From NCBI GenBank assembly GCA_036567785.1, contig DATCTV010000044.1:1-34462 (forward strand): a DNA stretch of 34,462 nt, given 5' to 3'. Under the pieces are notes generated by a model that saw only the letters and a list, made by a program, of their open reading frames with translations, was not told where the DNA came from and searched no databases. The translations under genes were made by a program, and so were the position numbers. How positions within the stretch are numbered: position 1 is the first letter of the stretch; each line of letters starts with the position of its first letter. The stretch comes from Desulfomonilia bacterium (GTDB lineage Bacteria; Desulfobacterota; Desulfomonilia; UBA1062). Shown in pieces: positions 14,782 to 24,006 of the stretch.

Positions 14782-15170
14782 GTTAACCTCTTGTATGGTT
14801 TGTATTCCCAGGCAATGAGTATACAAACTCTTCTTGTATTTCTGAAAGACGACTTATTTCAATTGCCGAATAGGATCATCGAGATGTTGTTGAAGGTCAT
14901 TTTCGGTATTGGATTACTTCGAATCTCAGTTGTTTGGGAGCTTTACGTAAGCACAGGGATATTGTCAAGCTAATAATATTTTTTACAAACAGTCTGCAGT
15001 CGCACATCTTGTGGAACAAATGTTATTTTATAAATCTCAGCAGGCAAGAATGTAGTCAGAATTGTTAAGAATATTTATGCAACAATATATGTAATTTATT
15101 TACAGACCCTTGATTACACATATCATAAAGATATTATTTAAATTATTTTACAGGATTAAATGAGGTGATT
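14782..15170. promoter_or_regulatory. Divergent intergenic region with csp leader and two promoter candidates
   Basis: This 389-base AT-rich gap has no convincing gene. A forward open frame crossing 14695-14973 is a shadow of csp. On the reverse strand TTGACA (14963-14968) lies 17 bases from TAAAGC (14940-14945), a possible csp promoter with a weak -10. On the forward strand TTGATT (15110-15115) lies 16 bases from TATTAT (15132-15137), a possible promoter for the aminotransferase pair. Both are by-eye matches. Confidence 0.4.
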
Positions 15171-16430
15171 ATGGGCTATACAGGAAGGGATACAAAGGAA
15201 GGGATTATAAACCGGTTTGGGGCATATGTTTCTTCAGGCAAGGCTGAATTTTTTAAAAGCGTCGGCATTGACTTTGTATTTGGTAAAAGGCAGGGGCCGT
15301 TTATCTGGGATGCAGTAAGCGGCAAAAGGCTTATCAACTGTCACAGCAATGGTGGTGTATTCAACCTCGGACATAGAAACCCAGAGATTATAGAAGCTCT
15401 CAAAAATGCGCTTGATGAACTCGATATCGGCAATCATCACCTGATAAGCGAACAAAGGGCAATACTTGCCGAAAGGCTTGCTGAACTTACTCCTGAAGGT
15501 ATTACCTACACGGTTTTCGGTTCAGGTGGCGGTGAAGCTATCGATCTTTCTATCAAGCTTGCAAGAGGCTACACCGGCAGACAGAAAATAATATCCGCAA
15601 ACGGTGGCTATCACGGTCATACGGGTTTTGCAATTGCAACCGGCGATGAACAGTACAGAGCCCCTTTCGGCCCCAATCAGCCTGGTTTCATTCAGATTCC
15701 TTTCAATGATAAACAGGCAGTTGCTCAGGCTGTGGATGAAAATACTGCAGCGGTAATATTCGAAACAATTCCAGCCACACTCGGGATGCCGGTTCCTGAT
15801 CGAGATTATTTTTCATATGTTAAGGACGTATGTAAAAAGAAAAATTCGCTGCTAATAATAGATGAAGTTCAGACAGGTCTTGGCAGGACTGGGAGGCTCT
15901 GGGGCATTGAACATTTTGGTGTTTCACCCGATATCATGGTTATTGGCAAAGGTCTTTCAGGTGGAATATATCCTATTAGCGCCACCTGTTTTACCAAAGA
16001 GCTTCAGACGTTTTTCCATGCAAACCCTTTTATCCATATATCCACTTTCGGAGGCGCCGAGGTAGGGTGCCCCGTTGCAATGAAGGTCCTGGAGATCTCA
16101 TCAGAACCCGGATTTCTTGAAAACGTCGTGAACATTTCAGATAGGATTGCAAAAGGCTTTGACGAACTCGTGCAAAGACATCCGGGAATCCTTACAGGCC
16201 TGCGAAGGCTTGGGCTGATGATGGGCTTTGAGATGGTAAATGACATGTGCGGGCCTGTGATGACCAGGACATGCTATGACAACGGTATTCTTAGCATTTA
16301 TGCAAACAATGACAAGCGTATAAGCCAGCTCCTTCCACCGCTTATTATTGACAATACATTGGCTGATGAAATTATTGAAAGACTTGATTTATCACTTTCC
16401 GATGCTGAAAATCTTCTTGGATTGAAATAG
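15171..16430 (+). CDS. Class III PLP-dependent aminotransferase family enzyme
   Basis: The 419-residue protein has the class III fold signature. The cofactor-aspartate segment LLIIDEVQTGLGRTGRLWG has D231, and the Schiff-base lysine K260 lies in IGKGLSGG. GSGGGEAIDLSIKLAR and YHGHTGFAIATG bind phosphate and ring. It resembles acetylornithine, ornithine and 4-aminobutyrate aminotransferases, but the substrate cannot be assigned, and this class also includes phospho-lyases and mutases. The ATG at 15171 follows TGAGGTG, so it is preferred to the GTG at 15165. The next gene, nine bases downstream, encodes a kinase-like protein, and the two probably act together. Confidence 0.9.
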   Translation: MGYTGRDTKEGIINRFGAYVSSGKAEFFKSVGIDFVFGKRQGPFIWDAVSGKRLINCHSNGGVFNLGHRNPEIIEALKNALDELDIGNHHLISEQRAILAERLAELTPEGITYTVFGSGGGEAIDLSIKLARGYTGRQKIISANGGYHGHTGFAIATGDEQYRAPFGPNQPGFIQIPFNDKQAVAQAVDENTAAVIFETIPATLGMPVPDRDYFSYVKDVCKKKNSLLIIDEVQTGLGRTGRLWGIEHFGVSPDIMVIGKGLSGGIYPISATCFTKELQTFFHANPFIHISTFGGAEVGCPVAMKVLEISSEPGFLENVVNISDRIAKGFDELVQRHPGILTGLRRLGLMMGFEMVNDMCGPVMTRTCYDNGILSIYANNDKRISQLLPPLIIDNTLADEIIERLDLSLSDAENLLGLK

Positions 16431-16439
16431 GGGGACGTA

Positions 16440-17408
16440 ATGATCAAAGAGCAGATAAGCAGCAGTTATATTTCGGAATTCGAAAAAGGCCTGAATCCTC
16501 TTCATCCTGACAAAAGCACGATTCCTGCAAGGATAATAGGCTATGGAGAGATGAGCACAATATTCGTTATTGATGAACCGGGACAGGAAGAACTTGCCTA
16601 TAAAAGGATGCCGATTTTTTTTAATAGTGAAGAGATGAGGGAATACGAAGTTCTTTTTAACGAATATAATGAACTTCTGAGCAGGATCGGACTCGTTATT
16701 CCGGCCTTTGCCTCGGTCATGGTAGTTCCCGATAAAGGCAATCTGGTCATTTATAACGCACAGAAAAGGCTGCCCTCAGAATCAATATGCAATTCTCTTA
16801 TACATTCTCTTGATGCTGCTTCCGTCAATATGCTGATCCTTCTGGTTTTGAGAGAAATTAAAAGGATCTTTGATTACAATAGAGCAAATCCTGGAAATGA
16901 AGTCGGTATCGACGGACAGATATCAAACTGGGCGGTTGCAGGGTGGTCTGCGGGAATGGAAATCACTGAAAAAACGAGGCTTTTTTACCTAGATACCAGC
17001 ACTCCTCTCATGAAAAATTCAGGCAGGGAGAGGCTTAATCCCGAGCTCTTTCTAAGGAGTACCCCATCATTTCTGAGATGGATGATCAGGCTCTTTTTTC
17101 TTGATGATGTGATGAACCGGTATTACGATTTCAGGAAAGTTGCAATTGATCTGATTGCAAATTTTCACAAGGAACAGAGAAAAGAAGTAATACCGGCGCT
17201 TGTTGAAACGGCAAATGCTTTTTTTGCCTGTGAATGTCCATCGCTGGGTATTCCACCTCTTACTGTTAAAGAGGTTGATGATTATTATAAGGAAGATGCA
17301 CTCATCTGGCGGTTATATCTGGCATTCAGAAAATTTGACAGATTCCTGCACTTGAAGATTATGAACAAACCCTACCCCTATATACTTCCAGGGAATATCA
17401 AGCGCTGA
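16440..17408 (+). CDS. Uncharacterised protein (probably DUF6206) with kinase-like active-site pattern
   Basis: I do not know a function for this 322-residue soluble protein. By memory it matches the DUF6206 family. Its residues fit a protein-kinase-like/aminoglycoside-phosphotransferase scheme: a glycine-loop-like IGYGEMSTIFVI (33-44), a lysine in AYKRM (K55), a glutamate-rich helix (SEEMREYE, 63-70), D158-x4-N163 (DGQISN) in a catalytic-loop position, and D185 in FYLDTSTP in a DFG-like position. It is co-transcribed with the class III aminotransferase (nine-base gap, GGGG before the ATG). Kinase activity is an inference from motif order only. Confidence 0.7.
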   Translation: MIKEQISSSYISEFEKGLNPLHPDKSTIPARIIGYGEMSTIFVIDEPGQEELAYKRMPIFFNSEEMREYEVLFNEYNELLSRIGLVIPAFASVMVVPDKGNLVIYNAQKRLPSESICNSLIHSLDAASVNMLILLVLREIKRIFDYNRANPGNEVGIDGQISNWAVAGWSAGMEITEKTRLFYLDTSTPLMKNSGRERLNPELFLRSTPSFLRWMIRLFFLDDVMNRYYDFRKVAIDLIANFHKEQRKEVIPALVETANAFFACECPSLGIPPLTVKEVDDYYKEDALIWRLYLAFRKFDRFLHLKIMNKPYPYILPGNIKR

Positions 17409-17460: not shown

Positions 17461-18510
17461 ATGAAGACGCGAATTACCGAATCACTTGGAATAAAATACC
17501 CGATATTGCTTTCCGGCATGAGTTGGATAAGCGTACCGGAAATGGTTGCTGCAGTATCCAATGCGGGCGGGCTGGGAATTCTGGCTACGGGTCCGCTGGA
17601 TGCACAGCAGACAAGAACTTCAATCAAAAAAATAAAAAGCCTGACCGATAAGCCTTTCGGAATAAATGCATCACTTCTTTTTCCCGGGGCTTCAGATAAT
17701 GCCAAGGTTGCCCTTGAAGAAAATGTGCCGGTAATAAATTTTGCTCTGGGCAAAGGAGACTGGATAGTTAAAGAGGCGCATAAATACGGTGGCAAGGTGC
17801 TGGCAACCGTTGTAAACCACAGGCATGCAAAACGGGCACAGGACTACGGTGTGGACGGTGTCATAGTAACAGGCCATGAAGCTGCGGCTCACGGCGGCGA
17901 TGTGACAACCTTCGTACTCATACCTACAATAGCCTCAGCCGTACAGATTCCGGTTATAGCCGCAGGAGGTATTGCTGATGGCCGCGGACTGGCAGCAGCT
18001 CTTGCACTTGGTGCCGAAGGTGTGGCAATGGGCACGCGCCTGATGTCGACGAAAGAAAGTCCGCTTCATGATAACTTCAAGAAGCTCTCCATTGAAAAAG
18101 ATGTCTATGATACGCTTTATTCAACAAGATTCGACGGGCTGGGCTGCCGCGTACTTGATACCCCGGCTGCACATGATGCTATTCGGAATGGTCTCAATAT
18201 AAAGAAGATGATAGAGGCCATACCTAATTCAGCAGCCATTGCGAAGCAGCTCCACCTGCCTTATATCAAGCTGTTTATAGGTGTTCTTGCTTCAGGTATG
18301 AAGAATGCCATGCAGCTCGCATTCATGGCGAATGCATTCAAAGCTATCAGGGTGGCTACCGAGGATGGCGATATAAAAGACGGGGTTCTTCCTGTAGGGC
18401 AGGACACAGGTCTGATCAAGGACGTGCCGAGTGTTGCAGAGCTTATGGACAGGATGGTTAAAGAGGCTGAAGAGGTCTCTGTCAGACTCTCAGGATTAAT
18501 GAAGCAATAA
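17461..18510 (+). CDS. Nitronate monooxygenase / 2-nitropropane dioxygenase-like flavoprotein
   Basis: The protein is a TIM-barrel FMN enzyme of 349 residues. Family members oxidise nitronates such as propionate 3-nitronate, and relatives include enoyl-ACP reductase FabK-like enzymes. Signatures are GIKYPILLSGMSWISVPEMVAAVSNAGGLGIL at the N terminus, the GHEAAAHGG histidine segment at about 140, and the phosphate-binding VIAAGGIADGRGLAAALALGAEGVAMGTRL. Start ATG follows AAGGAG. A second family member is encoded convergently just downstream. In an anaerobe the true substrate may not be a nitronate. Confidence 0.85.
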   Translation: MKTRITESLGIKYPILLSGMSWISVPEMVAAVSNAGGLGILATGPLDAQQTRTSIKKIKSLTDKPFGINASLLFPGASDNAKVALEENVPVINFALGKGDWIVKEAHKYGGKVLATVVNHRHAKRAQDYGVDGVIVTGHEAAAHGGDVTTFVLIPTIASAVQIPVIAAGGIADGRGLAAALALGAEGVAMGTRLMSTKESPLHDNFKKLSIEKDVYDTLYSTRFDGLGCRVLDTPAAHDAIRNGLNIKKMIEAIPNSAAIAKQLHLPYIKLFIGVLASGMKNAMQLAFMANAFKAIRVATEDGDIKDGVLPVGQDTGLIKDVPSVAELMDRMVKEAEEVSVRLSGLMKQ

Positions 18511-18576: not shown

Positions 18577-19566
18577 CTAATTAAACAGGTTTCTGGTCTT
18601 TTTCAGTACGGCGTTTGCCTCATTATGCATTTTAATAAGCAGGTCTTTACAAGGCAGTATATCATGAATAAGTCCTATGGACTGGCCTACCATTAGAGGT
18701 GCCATATCGACATTACCCTCTTCCCATGCCTGTTTTATACGGGGGCCTGAGATTAATGGAATAAGCTTGTCGAGTCCGCCGCCCGTGGATTCAATCTCTA
18801 ATACCTCTTCGATAACCTTATTGATAAGGGCTCTTCCCTGAAGGCCGATTGATCTGCCGAATATCCGGGTATCATTCTCCTGCCGGTTAATGATCTCCTG
18901 CTTTATGTTTTCATGGACCATGCATTCCTTTGTTGCGATAAAACGGCTTGCCATCATGACGCCCTGTGCTCCCAGCGTAAGTGCTGCAGCCATGCTTCTT
19001 CCATCCGCTATGCCTCCCACCGTCACAACTGGAATCCTGACTGTTTCAGCTATACGCGGCGTTAAAACCATTGTCGTGACGTCATCACTCAGGGGATGCC
19101 CGCCTTCTTCAAGCCCTGCTGCATATACACCATCATAACCGGCCTTTTCCGCATGAACGGCATGTCTGACCGATCCCACCTTATGGAAAAGTCTGACCCC
19201 TGCCTTTTTGAGTCTCTTTACGCCATCCTCCCCGGCTACCTTGTCCAGCGGAGTACCTGATACTTCAATTGCCGGAACCTTTTCCTCCTGACAGACCTTG
19301 ATATACATCTGATGGTGTTCGGATGTAATCCTGATGGAAGGGAGAAGGGTCAGCCCGATTACGAAAGGTTTGGCTGTCAATTCTCTGACCTCTGCTATCG
19401 CATTCCTGAAATCCTGTTCTGTTTCATAATTTGCCGCAGTAAGATTGCCCATACCGCCGGCTTCTGAAATGGCAGCACACAACTGGGGCTTGCAAAGCCA
19501 CATCATCGCCCCGCATATTATCGGGTATTTTATCCCGAACATTTCAGTGATAGCAGTTTTAATCAT
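18577..19566 (-). CDS. Nitronate monooxygenase-family flavoprotein, second paralogue
   Basis: This 329-residue FMN TIM-barrel protein parallels its convergent neighbour: GIKYPIICGAMMWLCKPQLCAAISEAGGMGNL, GLEEGGHPLSDDVTTMVL, and the phosphate-binding VVTVGGIADGRSMAAALTLGAQGVMMASRF. It lacks the AHGGD form of the histidine loop (it has GGHPLSDD), so the two paralogues probably differ in substrate. GGAGG precedes the ATG. A perfect palindrome in its upstream region suggests local regulation. Confidence 0.85.
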   Translation of the reverse strand: MIKTAITEMFGIKYPIICGAMMWLCKPQLCAAISEAGGMGNLTAANYETEQDFRNAIAEVRELTAKPFVIGLTLLPSIRITSEHHQMYIKVCQEEKVPAIEVSGTPLDKVAGEDGVKRLKKAGVRLFHKVGSVRHAVHAEKAGYDGVYAAGLEEGGHPLSDDVTTMVLTPRIAETVRIPVVTVGGIADGRSMAAALTLGAQGVMMASRFIATKECMVHENIKQEIINRQENDTRIFGRSIGLQGRALINKVIEEVLEIESTGGGLDKLIPLISGPRIKQAWEEGNVDMAPLMVGQSIGLIHDILPCKDLLIKMHNEANAVLKKTRNLFN

Positions 19567-20825: not shown

Positions 20826-21734
20826 TTACGGTATTTTCCTCAAAAGTCTGAATGTAATGGATAGCCTGGAATCCTGTCTGCAGTCCTGTCCCAGACATAT
20901 ATAACCGCTGCTTACAAGCTCGCATTCATCATTATGGACATAAGCAGTATTCCCGTCATCATTGTGAATGTACGAGCCATTCGTACTATGATCGATAAAT
21001 ATAAATTTCCCCTTGTGGTATTCTATCCTGCAGTGTGAACGTGAAACCATGGTGTCTTCAATAGTGATTGTATTATGTCCCTGTCTGCCGATGCTTATTG
21101 TGGGGTTTGATCTGTCAATGCTTACTTTCTTTTCTGCTGAAACGATATTCATAATATTTCCATATTCTTGCTTTGGTTGTTCGGCCTTCAAAATGACTGT
21201 TTTATTGCTTTCTTCCCAGACGATTTCATATATGTCGAATTCTCCGCCTTTGCCTTTAATTATGGTCCTGTCAAAAAATCCGGCCTTCTCTTTAAGAAAA
21301 TCAGGGAGGATATTTACAGTCTGTTTGGTTGTAACGATCTGTCTTGGTTTTGCAAGAGAAACCATTCTTGCGGCGATATTGACCGTATCACCAAAGATGT
21401 CGCTTTGTACAAGCAGTACGGGGCCTGTGTGAAAACCTATCCTTATATCAGGAACAATATGCCCGTCCGCCTTCCTTTCCTCAATCTGGTCCCTGAGCTC
21501 ATGCATTGCTATGGCTGCATCCGCTGCATTGGTTGCATCATTAAAAGAGCACATTAAGCCGTCACCCATTGTTTTTATGATTTCACCGTCATGCAATTGT
21601 ACGGTTATAGCAAGCATTGAAAGACATTCATTTATAATGCAGTGTGCGGCTTCATCGCCCAGGGTTTCATAAAGGGTGGTGCTTCCCGATATGTCGACAA
21701 AAAGTATTGTCAGAATATCATCTGTCCTTGCCAT
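20826..21734 (-). CDS. Class III adenylate cyclase with C-terminal FHA domain
   Basis: The 302-residue cytosolic protein starts with a class III cyclase domain containing the metal aspartates D14 (FVDISGS) and D58 (MGDG), the adenine-selecting pair K54 and D112, and the transition-state residues N119 and R123 (GDTVNIAAR). All expected catalytic residues are present, so cAMP synthesis is likely. An FHA phosphothreonine-binding domain follows (SIGRQGHNTI, MVSRSHCRIEY, DHSTNGSYIHND). The ATG at 21734 avoids overlap with the upstream AOR gene and leaves a 13-base gap. The FHA domain suggests control by a Ser/Thr kinase. Confidence 0.9.
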   Translation of the reverse strand: MARTDDILTILFVDISGSTTLYETLGDEAAHCIINECLSMLAITVQLHDGEIIKTMGDGLMCSFNDATNAADAAIAMHELRDQIEERKADGHIVPDIRIGFHTGPVLLVQSDIFGDTVNIAARMVSLAKPRQIVTTKQTVNILPDFLKEKAGFFDRTIIKGKGGEFDIYEIVWEESNKTVILKAEQPKQEYGNIMNIVSAEKKVSIDRSNPTISIGRQGHNTITIEDTMVSRSHCRIEYHKGKFIFIDHSTNGSYIHNDDGNTAYVHNDECELVSSGYICLGQDCRQDSRLSITFRLLRKIP

Positions 21735-21747
21735 GATCGGGATATAA

Positions 21748-23937
21748 TCATGAGCATAGAAGTTCTGCAAGACGCTCCTTTGTATAATCATTGATGAAAT
21801 CCCACAAGCCCAGTTTTTTCAGAGTTTCAATAGAGGGGATACCTTGTGAAGTCCATCCCCTGGCATCGTAATATGACTGGACAAGATTTTTCAGGCGGTC
21901 TTTCCTGCTGTTCATGAGGATAGCCCTTTTCTCCGCTACACTCATCTGATTTGCAATGGAGCGGTCTTTGCCTGTTATGCGGGAGACTTCTTCATCATTA
22001 TATTCCATTTCTGCTTCATAAAGACTGTCCGTAGTAGGGCCTATTGCACGGTCGGGTATCCAGTCATGAGCCCCTGTTTCCTTTCCGTAAGCCATCACGT
22101 TCATCACACGTTGAAGGTTTATGTCCCGGTCGGTCTGTTCGAATATCTGTTCCCAGGTCATATTCGTTCCCATCATGCCGTTATAGAAGCCTGCATAAAA
22201 TTCCTGAGAGGCCGGATTTATATATATGTCCGTATTTGTGAACTTTTCAGAATCGGGATTGAAAACGTCGACCCAGGGAAGTTTGCAAAGCCCCAGATTG
22301 TCGTTGCCGAGCCTGACACGTGGATATGTTATGAGAGCACGAGCCTTGTGCTCTGGGGTAGGAAAAGCTCCGAGCAGGTCGGCTTTAATAAGCCAGGCTG
22401 CGGCATGGTGCGCCCCGATGTCACTTGCCGCTGCATAAGACCCCTGCATGGACAGGGAACGGTGAGTTCTGTACAGGGAAAAAGGAAGCCCTTTTGAATG
22501 CATTGCGAAAAGCTCAAGTTCATGCCTTGGATTAGGTTCTCCGGTTCTCTGCACATACTTTTCTGCGACCCAGTCGACAAGTTCCAGCATTCCCTTTCCA
22601 GCGATACTTGCAAGTTCGGATTCCTGCAGGCTCACTTGGTGTATGAATTCGGCTGCAGCATGTGAATCACCCCAGTTCAGTTCGAATCCACCGGTGTCAT
22701 CTTTTGTAAGGTAACCTCTCTGGAAACATTCCATGATGAAAGCCATTATGACTGAAACGGTTATTGTATCGATGCCGTAATCGTCACAGTACCAGTTTGC
22801 CTCCATGATGAATTCAGGATCGAAAATTCCAAGATTTGAACCGAATCCGGCTGCTGTTTCATACTCGGGGCCGTCAACCCAGACCTTCAAGCCTTTTTTA
22901 CCACCCGACTTGAGTGTTACAAAACCGCCTTTTGTGCATCTGAGATTGCATCCCGGAAAACAGCCGTCATTGCCGCTGTGTTCGAAGAGGTGCTCTGCAT
23001 AGAATTTACCGCATATTTTATCAGCATTAGCATCTGTACCATACTGGTAGTTCCTTACCGGAAGCGAGCAGTAGGAATTTCTGTTCATGAATGAAATGAG
23101 TCCCGCGCTTCCTTTTCTGTGCATTTGAAGTGAGTGAGGGTCCACCTCGTGGACTACCTTGCTGAGTTTGTGTCCGGATTCCTTTACTTTTTCCCAATCC
23201 GCCGCTCCGTACGGGTTTTCCCCTTTCGGGTAATCTGCAAGGATTACAATGGCCCTGATTTTTTTATCAGCCATCACAGTACCCAGCCCAGTCCGGCCTG
23301 CCTGTTTGGCTCGCCAGATTCCTTTAGAACCGTCAATTGCAGGTTTTGTAGGATCGAAATAATGGCTGTTGATGCAGCCGTAATTGGTTTTTGCCGCACC
23401 TGTTCCCGTTGTAACGAACACGATTTGTTTTCTTTCAAAACCCTGAGCTGTGAACATATCTGCGATATTCTTCTCGAGATCGAAAACCAGGTCGATAGAA
23501 GGAGCAGCCACGACTGATATTTCGCCGTTTAATGCATCTATGATAATCATGGAGTCTGTCTTGCTTTTCCCGGTCAGGAGCAGGGTGTCGAAACCGGCAT
23601 ATTTCAGAAAGGCGCCGAAATGTCCCCCGAAATTGGATACGCCGGGTACATGGGTAAGAGGAGAAAGTGAAACAGCCATACATTTTGCAGTGCCTGGGAA
23701 CTGAGGAATTCCACCAAGTGGTCCGGGTGAAAATATCAGCGGATTTTTCGGATCGAACGCATCCATTCCCGGAGAAGTATGGGTATGAAGGAAATATAGT
23801 CCCATCCCCCTGCCGCCAATAAAATAATCCCTTACCGCAGGGTCTATCGGTTTTATGGTGACAGATTCCATATCAAGATCAATATCGAGATACCTGTTCG
23901 AATATCCATGAACAAGCTGCTGTTTTGAATAATGCAT
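21748..23937 (-). CDS. Aldehyde:ferredoxin oxidoreductase family tungsten enzyme
   Basis: The 729-residue protein is an AOR-family tungsten/molybdopterin oxidoreductase, typically oxidising aldehydes to acids with ferredoxin in anaerobes. The N-terminal cofactor domain has FIGGRGMGLYFL and PGPLGGIPQFPGTAKCMAVSLSPLT. The [4Fe-4S] ligands appear to be C326, C330, C334 and C551 (GCFPGCNLRC, LGLCKLPW), with a C-x3-C start instead of the usual C-x2-C. The start is uncertain: GGAGG is 12 bases before the ATG at 23937 and three before an in-frame TTG at 23946. It heads a reverse operon with the cyclase and phosphoesterase. Confidence 0.92.
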   Translation of the reverse strand: MHYSKQQLVHGYSNRYLDIDLDMESVTIKPIDPAVRDYFIGGRGMGLYFLHTHTSPGMDAFDPKNPLIFSPGPLGGIPQFPGTAKCMAVSLSPLTHVPGVSNFGGHFGAFLKYAGFDTLLLTGKSKTDSMIIIDALNGEISVVAAPSIDLVFDLEKNIADMFTAQGFERKQIVFVTTGTGAAKTNYGCINSHYFDPTKPAIDGSKGIWRAKQAGRTGLGTVMADKKIRAIVILADYPKGENPYGAADWEKVKESGHKLSKVVHEVDPHSLQMHRKGSAGLISFMNRNSYCSLPVRNYQYGTDANADKICGKFYAEHLFEHSGNDGCFPGCNLRCTKGGFVTLKSGGKKGLKVWVDGPEYETAAGFGSNLGIFDPEFIMEANWYCDDYGIDTITVSVIMAFIMECFQRGYLTKDDTGGFELNWGDSHAAAEFIHQVSLQESELASIAGKGMLELVDWVAEKYVQRTGEPNPRHELELFAMHSKGLPFSLYRTHRSLSMQGSYAAASDIGAHHAAAWLIKADLLGAFPTPEHKARALITYPRVRLGNDNLGLCKLPWVDVFNPDSEKFTNTDIYINPASQEFYAGFYNGMMGTNMTWEQIFEQTDRDINLQRVMNVMAYGKETGAHDWIPDRAIGPTTDSLYEAEMEYNDEEVSRITGKDRSIANQMSVAEKRAILMNSRKDRLKNLVQSYYDARGWTSQGIPSIETLKKLGLWDFINDYTKERLAELLCS

Positions 23938-24006
23938 AAGTTTCAAAAACCTCCATGTTATTTTATGTCTTAAAATTCAACAAGCGTTTGATTTATACAA
24001 GAAATT

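What the first reader, a model, noticed from the sequence alone, without database searches (positions are those of the whole stretch)
15171..17408. Class III aminotransferase coupled to a kinase-like DUF: possible phosphorylate-then-eliminate unit
Seen: a class III PLP enzyme (K260, D231) followed after nine bases by a 322-residue protein with kinase-fold landmarks in order (GYGEMS, K55, D158-x4-N163, D185). Known: class III PLP phospho-lyases act on ethanolamine phosphate (ETNPPL) and phosphohydroxylysine (PHYKPL), the latter after an APH-fold kinase. APH-aminotransferase fusions also exist. Inference: the DUF phosphorylates a hydroxy-amine and the PLP enzyme eliminates the phosphate.
Basis: partly seen in the sequence, partly recalled or inferred. 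Interest (0 to 1): 0.6.

Follow-up and report, generated by a model that had tools for sequence, protein, structure and literature searches.

The report
Kinase-fold DUF6206 paired with aminotransferase-like enzyme
Two adjacent bacterial genes encode an unstudied protein that looks like a working small-molecule kinase and a relative of aminotransferases that has lost the residues such enzymes use to hold glutamate; together they probably add a phosphate to an amino-alcohol and then knock it off, a two-step chemistry known in only a few enzyme pairs.

Summary
The two genes are a class III PLP enzyme (PF00202) and, nine bases on, a DUF6206 protein (PF19709). (1) The DUF6206 model (pLDDT 91.5) has the protein-kinase/APH fold. 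(2) Gly-loop G36-E37, K55, D158, N163 and D185 are invariant in 36 of 36 homologues. (3) In 37 of 41 genomes the PLP gene is adjacent on the same strand, with the order swapped in three Chloroflexota.

Two further points emerged. The linked PLP enzymes share a 'PAT/Q' signature: the gate Glu and carboxylate-binding Arg of glutamate/2-oxoglutarate transaminases are replaced by Thr and Gln; known phospho-lyases have also lost both. The nearest PAT/Q enzymes outside DUF6206 loci lie beside unrelated APH-family kinases (Pseudomonas; Burkholderia, with an aldehyde dehydrogenase) or a phosphodiesterase. This supports 'phosphorylate, then eliminate phosphate', but no substrate is identified and neither activity is shown. 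DUF6206 is not an APH-family member by sequence, and the PLP enzyme does not group with ETNPPL/A1RDF1 phospho-lyases, though that is not formally excluded.

Verdict: real, conserved and uncharacterised; a new variant of a known kind.

The parts
15171..16430 (+). Class III fold PLP enzyme of the PAT/Q subtype (419 aa from ATG 15171; the ORF list gives GTG 15165). PLP lysine K262 and D233 in 421-aa numbering (K260/D231 from the ATG).
   Evidence: PF00202 1.3e-80; no NCBIfam equivalog cut-off reached, best putrescine aminotransferase 271 of 612 bits; model closest to YgjG 4uox, TM 0.91; ETIPAT at 200-205 and Q388 in every DUF-linked homologue aligned, with I/V/L allowed at 202
15161..15170 (+). 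Ribosome-binding-site-like stretch (GAGGTG) just before ATG 15171
   Evidence: sequence read directly
16431..16439 (+). Nine-base gap, starting GGGGGA, between the two genes (probable ribosome-binding site for the second gene; suggests co-transcription)
   Evidence: sequence read directly
16440..17408 (+). DUF6206 protein, 322 aa, predicted kinase-like fold: Gly-loop GYGEMS 34-39, K55, D158-x4-N163, D185-T-S-T-P
   Evidence: PF19709 2.4e-22; AlphaFold pLDDT 91.5, pTM 0.90; Foldseek and VIA-align matches to kinases, Z up to 10.6; invariant residues

Best explanation
The two genes form a conserved functional unit. DUF6206 is an active small-molecule kinase that phosphorylates a hydroxyl group on an amino-alcohol or hydroxylated amine. 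The PAT/Q class III enzyme binds the phosphorylated amine as a PLP aldimine, removes a proton and eliminates phosphate (ammonio-phospho-lyase chemistry), leaving an enamine that hydrolyses to an aldehyde or ketone and ammonia. Shown computationally: kinase fold, invariant catalytic residues, linkage, loss of the glutamate/2-oxoglutarate clamp in the PLP enzyme, and association of its relatives with other kinases. Inferred: catalytic activity, order of the steps, elimination rather than transamination, and the kind of substrate.
For: Kinase fold of DUF6206: pLDDT 91.5 with N-lobe strands, helix C, helix E, catalytic loop and DFG-like strand in kinase order; VIA-align Z 10.6 to WaaP and to the microcompartment aminopropanol kinase 6ef6, 10.3 to amicoumacin kinase, 10.1 to an aminoglycoside phosphotransferase. 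Catalytic K55, D158, N163, D185 invariant in 36/36. Linkage: 37 of 41 genomes from at least six phyla, 34 PLP-gene first, 3 kinase first. Among 60 relatives, 14 of the 15 genomes with a close copy of the PLP enzyme have DUF6206; the 15th copy is cut by a contig end. PLP enzyme: gate Glu -> T205 and Arg -> Q388 where YgjG, OAT, AstC, GabT, PigE and the E/R paralogues L107/L110 keep Glu and Arg. Phospho-lyase A1RDF1, ETNPPL and a P. mandelii APH-linked enzyme have T/C/S and Lys there. Other PAT/Q enzymes: Pseudomonas sp. MPC6 directly before an APH-family phosphotransferase; Burkholderia with an aldehyde dehydrogenase next to it and an APH/choline-kinase-like gene 1.5 kb away on the other strand; Mesorhizobium/Phyllobacterium beside a type I phosphodiesterase, in Phyllobacterium also DUF1045 and PhnF. 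An aldehyde:ferredoxin oxidoreductase is divergently adjacent in genus g6. Precedent for a bacterial kinase/class III pair on an amino-alcohol: the 1-amino-2-propanol microcompartment (PMC6620236), where the paper itself proposes transamination.
Against: No substrate is known and gene contexts differ: secernin-like hydrolase in many loci, tryptophan-dioxygenase-like plus kynureninase in two Saprospiraceae, cysteine synthase in a spirochaete. The PLP enzyme is not in the ETNPPL/A1RDF1 clade of the best tree, and has Gln, not Lys, at the Arg position. Loss of the Glu/Arg pair also occurs in true transaminases that use other partners: BioA lacks the Glu in the alignment. The other-kinase associations rest on two loci, one of them with the kinase on the opposite strand. 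Helix-C Glu of kinases not conserved in DUF6206.
Confidence: 0.5

Rival explanations
1. Aminate, then phosphorylate: the PLP enzyme is a true transaminase that uses a partner other than glutamate/2-oxoglutarate (pyruvate or an amine), and DUF6206 phosphorylates its product or another metabolite of the same pathway, for example in biosynthesis of an aminated, phosphorylated compound.
For: Closest relatives are transaminases (YgjG, PigE, ArgD), and most class III enzymes are transaminases (PMC8154272). Transaminases without the Glu exist in the same comparison (BioA).
Against: The Glu/Arg pair was lost together in all linked enzymes while sister paralogues without a kinase keep it. The nearest relatives sit with catabolic partners such as aldehyde dehydrogenase and phosphodiesterase.
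Confidence: 0.27
2. The PLP enzyme is a class III racemase, epimerase or aminomutase that does not need the carboxylate clamp, and the kinase acts on its product.
For: Several racemases and the aminomutase HemL share the fold and appear in the hit lists. HemL lacks the Glu/Arg pair in the alignment.
Against: None of the racemases is close to this clade by bit score, and no gene near it points to a stereochemical step.
Confidence: 0.1
3. DUF6206 is a protein kinase or regulator (or phosphorylates the PLP enzyme itself) rather than a metabolic kinase.
For: Foldseek's best rows are eukaryotic protein kinases, and MEK1 scores Z about 10.
Against: Small-molecule kinases score as high or higher (WaaP, aminopropanol kinase, amicoumacin kinase). 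There is no attached sensor domain; the one-to-one pairing with an enzyme and the use of an APH-family kinase beside a related enzyme fit a metabolic role.
Confidence: 0.08

Closest known systems
Ethanolamine-phosphate phospho-lyase ETNPPL (6tor), 5-phosphohydroxylysine phospho-lyase PHYKPL, and bacterial A1RDF1 phospholyase (5g4i), with their APH-fold kinases
   Same: Class III PLP fold; gate Glu and carboxylate Arg lost (T/C/S and Lys in the aligned phospho-lyases); linked to a kinase of the same overall fold. P. mandelii carries a classical APH plus phospho-lyase-type pair.
   Different: The window enzyme's profile scores far higher with YgjG (292 bits) than with ETNPPL (160 bits), falls elsewhere in the tree, has Gln instead of Lys, and its kinase is DUF6206, not an APH-family protein.
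1-amino-2-propanol (Aut/RMM) microcompartment kinase (6ef6) and class III enzyme
   Same: Small amino-alcohol kinase encoded with a class III PLP enzyme; 6ef6 ties for best structural match of the DUF6206 model, Z 10.6 (PMC6620236).
   Different: No shell-protein genes were recognised near the pair in the loci read; no sequence match of DUF6206 to any solved structure; about 8% identity in the structural alignment.
Putrescine aminotransferase YgjG (4uox) and PigE
   Same: Closest solved structures by sequence and fold (TM 0.91, 30% identity).
   Different: YgjG keeps EPIQGE and the Arg; the window enzyme has ETIPAT and Gln, and reaches less than half of the putrescine-aminotransferase cut-off.
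[quoted passage not shown]
   Same: A class III enzyme shown to be a lyase although annotated as a transaminase (PMC8154272).
   Different: Acts on a phosphonate without a kinase; the window enzyme scores 207 of 525 bits with its model.

Membership tests
Pfam DUF6206 (PF19709) | Profile score above the curated cut-off | tested here: met
   79.8 bits against 30.4
Protein-kinase-like (PKL) fold | Bilobal kinase fold | tested here: met
   AlphaFold pLDDT 91.5; 489 of 1000 compared chains at Z of 8 or more, best Z 10.6 over 218-221 residues at 4.9-5.0 A; Foldseek E 2.4e-4, prob 1.00, but TM only about 0.35
Protein-kinase-like (PKL) fold | Catalytic Lys, Asp, Asn and Mg-binding Asp conserved | tested here: met
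   K55, D158, N163, D185 in 36 of 36
Protein-kinase-like (PKL) fold | Conserved helix-C Glu pairing with the Lys | tested here: inconclusive
   No invariant Glu in helix 63-83; E37 in the Gly-loop is invariant and may take its place
Protein-kinase-like (PKL) fold | ATP-dependent phosphotransfer | not testable with these tools
   needs an assay
APH family (PF01636) | Sequence match to the family profile | tested here: not met
   no PF01636 hit for DUF6206; profile-profile probability 0.3% against APH-family sequences of the window's relatives; the genome search with PF01636 did not return the window locus
Aminotransferase class III (PF00202) | Profile score and PLP lysine/aspartate | tested here: met
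   271.6 bits against 30.5; K262 and D233 invariant
Glutamate/2-oxoglutarate-using class III transaminase | Gate Glu (EPIQGE) and C-terminal Arg | tested here: not met
   T205 and Q388 in all linked enzymes
ETNPPL/PHYKPL/A1RDF1 phospho-lyase family | Groups with the known phospho-lyases in a tree | tested here: inconclusive
   Separate in the best tree; forcing them together is worse by 14.4 log units but AU p 0.076 does not reject it
ETNPPL/PHYKPL/A1RDF1 phospho-lyase family | Lys at the former Arg position | tested here: not met
   Gln in the window clade; Lys in A1RDF1, ETNPPL and the P. mandelii enzyme
ETNPPL/PHYKPL/A1RDF1 phospho-lyase family | Phosphate elimination from an O-phospho-amine | not testable with these tools
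   needs an assay
Putrescine aminotransferase (NF008570, TIGR03372) | Curated equivalog cut-off | tested here: not met
   271.5 of 612 and 231.7 of 658.65 bits

The most novel reading that the evidence does not exclude
DUF6206 is a new family of metabolic kinases, and the PAT/Q enzymes are a second, independently evolved group of class III phospho-lyases that has recruited at least two sequence-unrelated kinase families (DUF6206 and APH-type). Together they would define an undescribed phosphorylate-then-eliminate route for amine breakdown spread across several anaerobic and aerobic phyla.
Probability: 0.35. Interest if true: 0.75.

Novelty: new variant of a known kind. Interest (0 to 1): 0.58.

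Why it matters
A domain listed as 'unknown function' would become a kinase with a defined partner. A group of enzymes routinely annotated as aminotransferases would become candidates for phospho-lyases, recognisable by a short signature (ETxPAT and Gln in place of EPIQGE and Arg). Both claims can be tested directly with two purified proteins and a panel of amino-alcohols. If right, it adds a way to break down amino-alcohols or hydroxylated amines without B12 or radical enzymes in organisms known mostly from metagenomes.

Tried and rejected
Fusion of the two genes: long ORFs in L010 and L019 first looked like aminotransferase-DUF6206 fusions, but the N-terminal part is the PLP gene read in the wrong frame.

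DUF6206 as an ordinary APH protein: rejected by profile comparison.

PLP enzyme as a standard putrescine or ornithine aminotransferase: no curated cut-off met, Glu/Arg lost.

Secernin-like hydrolase as an obligate third partner: it follows DUF6206 directly in ten distant loci. In the window's family it is mostly elsewhere in the genome and is also common in genomes without DUF6206, so it is an associate, not a required part.

Gene context did not give the substrate: housekeeping neighbours in the window's family, tryptophan-dioxygenase-like/kynureninase in two related Saprospiraceae, cysteine synthase in a spirochaete, M28 peptidases in two loci, thiamine genes in one Chloroflexota.

No DUF6206 in plasmids, no literature on DUF6206 or PF19709 in the held library. 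Papers on the phospho-lyase structures and on hydroxylysine kinase were not held.

The promoter/terminator scan found no more sites than shuffled sequence and is not used. Structural-list absences are not used as evidence. Failed calls with no result: 16-18, 42, 44, 69, 83; one search produced no usable comparison and was repeated.

Full report
OBSERVATION. The window carries, after the rplQ end of a ribosomal-protein operon, two same-strand genes: 15171-16430 and 16440-17408. The first is a class III PLP enzyme (PF00202, 1.3e-80), the second a DUF6206 protein (PF19709, 2.4e-22, above cut-off). ATG 15171 is preceded by GAGGTG, and the GTG at 15165 lies inside that stretch. The second gene starts nine bases after the stop, with GGGGGA in between.

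IS DUF6206 A KINASE? No solved structure matches by sequence and no paper in the held library names DUF6206 or PF19709. An alignment of 36 homologues (30-58% identity to the window protein) gives an AlphaFold model with pLDDT 91.5 and pTM 0.90. The order of elements is that of a kinase: strands 30-35, 40-44 and 52-56, helix 63-83, strands 90-95 and 102-109, helix 126-149, a short strand, the D158-N163 loop, strand 181-183, D185. All 50 Foldseek rows displayed are kinases or pseudokinases (E 2.4e-4, prob 1.00 at best, but TM about 0.35). VIA-align gives Z 10.6 for WaaP and for the microcompartment aminopropanol kinase, 10.3 for amicoumacin kinase, about 10 for aminoglycoside 2''-phosphotransferases and MEK1. 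G36, E37, K55, D158, Q160, N163, W164, D185, T188 and P189 are invariant in all 36; no Glu in helix 63-83 is. So it is a probable active kinase with an unusual Gly-loop, not a decayed one. It is not an APH-family protein by sequence.

LINKAGE. DUF6206 is rare and patchy: above cut-off in 14 of 395 genomes of the window's phylum, 4 of 251 Chloroflexota and 2 of 296 Bacteroidota, but in 15 of the 24 genomes of the window's own family. Of 41 distinct genomes with a DUF6206 locus, 37 have the PLP enzyme (50% identity or more) next to it on the same strand; in 34 the PLP gene comes first, in three Chloroflexota DUF6206 comes first. These loci were found through DUF6206, not through the pair. Among 60 relatives, 15 genomes have a close PLP copy (66% or more) and 14 of them have DUF6206; the fifteenth copy is cut by a contig end. 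The four exceptions are L056, L057, L058 and L038. The genome of L057 (G054) carries a PAT/Q enzyme elsewhere (L114).

WHAT THE PLP ENZYME HAS LOST. Closest by sequence and fold are YgjG and PigE, but no curated equivalog cut-off is met. In YgjG, ornithine aminotransferase, AstC, GabT and PigE the motif EP(I/V)(Q/L)GE and an Arg near the C-terminus form the clamp for the glutamate/2-oxoglutarate carboxylate (role from established knowledge of ornithine aminotransferase E235/R413). In all DUF-linked enzymes the motif is ET(I/V/L)PAT and the Arg is Gln. Sister paralogues from the window's genome and G054 (L107, L110), which sit near amino-acid permeases rather than kinases, keep Glu and Arg. The phospho-lyases A1RDF1 and ETNPPL, and a Pseudomonas mandelii enzyme encoded directly after an APH kinase, have lost both too (T, C or S, and Lys).

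RELATIVES WITH OTHER KINASES. PAT/Q enzymes outside DUF6206 loci were found on plasmids. In Pseudomonas sp. MPC6 the gene is followed directly by an APH-family phosphotransferase. In Burkholderia cenocepacia it is followed by an aldehyde dehydrogenase, with an APH/choline-kinase-like gene and an FAD-dependent-oxidoreductase gene in the divergent neighbourhood. In Mesorhizobium and Phyllobacterium it follows a type I phosphodiesterase in an ABC-transporter operon, with DUF1045 and PhnF nearby in Phyllobacterium. In the tree the DUF-linked enzymes form one clade (95/89) and the other PAT/Q enzymes another (95/97), both within a well-supported group that also holds the Glu/Arg paralogues (99/97). 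The phospho-lyases fall elsewhere, although an AU test does not quite exclude joining them (p 0.076). PAT/Q as a whole is one side of a branch only weakly (63/15).

THIRD PARTNERS. A secernin-like, C69-related hydrolase gene follows DUF6206 directly in ten distant loci (Aminicenantes, Bacteroidota, Chlorobiota, Spirochaetota, Desulfobacteraceae) and lies 1.4 kb away in an eleventh. In the window's genome it is on another contig, and it is common in relatives without DUF6206. Two related Saprospiraceae have a tryptophan-dioxygenase-like gene, the PLP gene, DUF6206 and kynureninase in a row. A spirochaete has Rrf2, cysteine synthase, PLP gene, DUF6206, secernin, GNAT. In genus g6 an aldehyde:ferredoxin oxidoreductase is divergently adjacent. 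These hint at breakdown of an amine, perhaps released from an amide or peptide, to an aldehyde, but do not name the substrate.

MECHANISM. Shown: fold, residues, linkage, loss of the clamp, partner kinases. Inferred: both activities, their order and the substrate. I put this at 0.5. A transaminase with another partner is the main rival (0.27).

STANDING. The general kind is known (kinase plus class III phospho-lyase). The kinase family, the PLP subtype and the distribution appear to be undescribed in the literature I could search. I call it a new variant of a known kind.

Noticed in passing
window 17461-18510 (+) and 18577-19566 (-): Two nitronate-monooxygenase/FabK-like genes lie just downstream, convergent with each other; both match TIGR03151 well below its cut-off. 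The first is 52 bases after DUF6206 on the same strand.
   Followed up: no
window 21748-23946 (-): Aldehyde:ferredoxin oxidoreductase of 732 aa about 4.3 kb downstream of the pair. A different AFOR is divergently adjacent to the PLP gene in genus g6 (L066, L113).
   Followed up: partly
window 20826-21791 (-): Adenylate/guanylate cyclase domain joined to an FHA domain in one protein.
   Followed up: no
L108 (G000 C62:59385-62005) and L110 (G054 C32): Tandem class III PLP genes. Those in L110 sit beside an amino-acid permease; those in L108 lie upstream of amidohydrolase, saccharopine-dehydrogenase-like and N-acyl-D-amino-acid-deacylase-like genes (named by eye, not by search). L108a and both L110 copies keep the Glu/Arg pair; L108b has an altered motif and a Glu where the PLP lysine is expected.
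   Followed up: partly
L116:5357-9870 and L036:3687-8343: Tryptophan-2,3-dioxygenase-like gene, PLP gene, DUF6206 and kynureninase in a row in two related Saprospiraceae.
   Followed up: partly
L038 and L123 (Phaeodactylibacter): DUF6206 is split across two frames just upstream of an intact secernin-like gene, and no PLP enzyme was found beside it: a probable decayed locus or assembly error.
   Followed up: no
L057:4693-5667 (G054): Stand-alone DUF6206 gene near a large glycyl-radical-like ORF and V4R-like proteins (named by eye); the genome's PAT/Q enzyme is on another contig (L114).
   Followed up: partly
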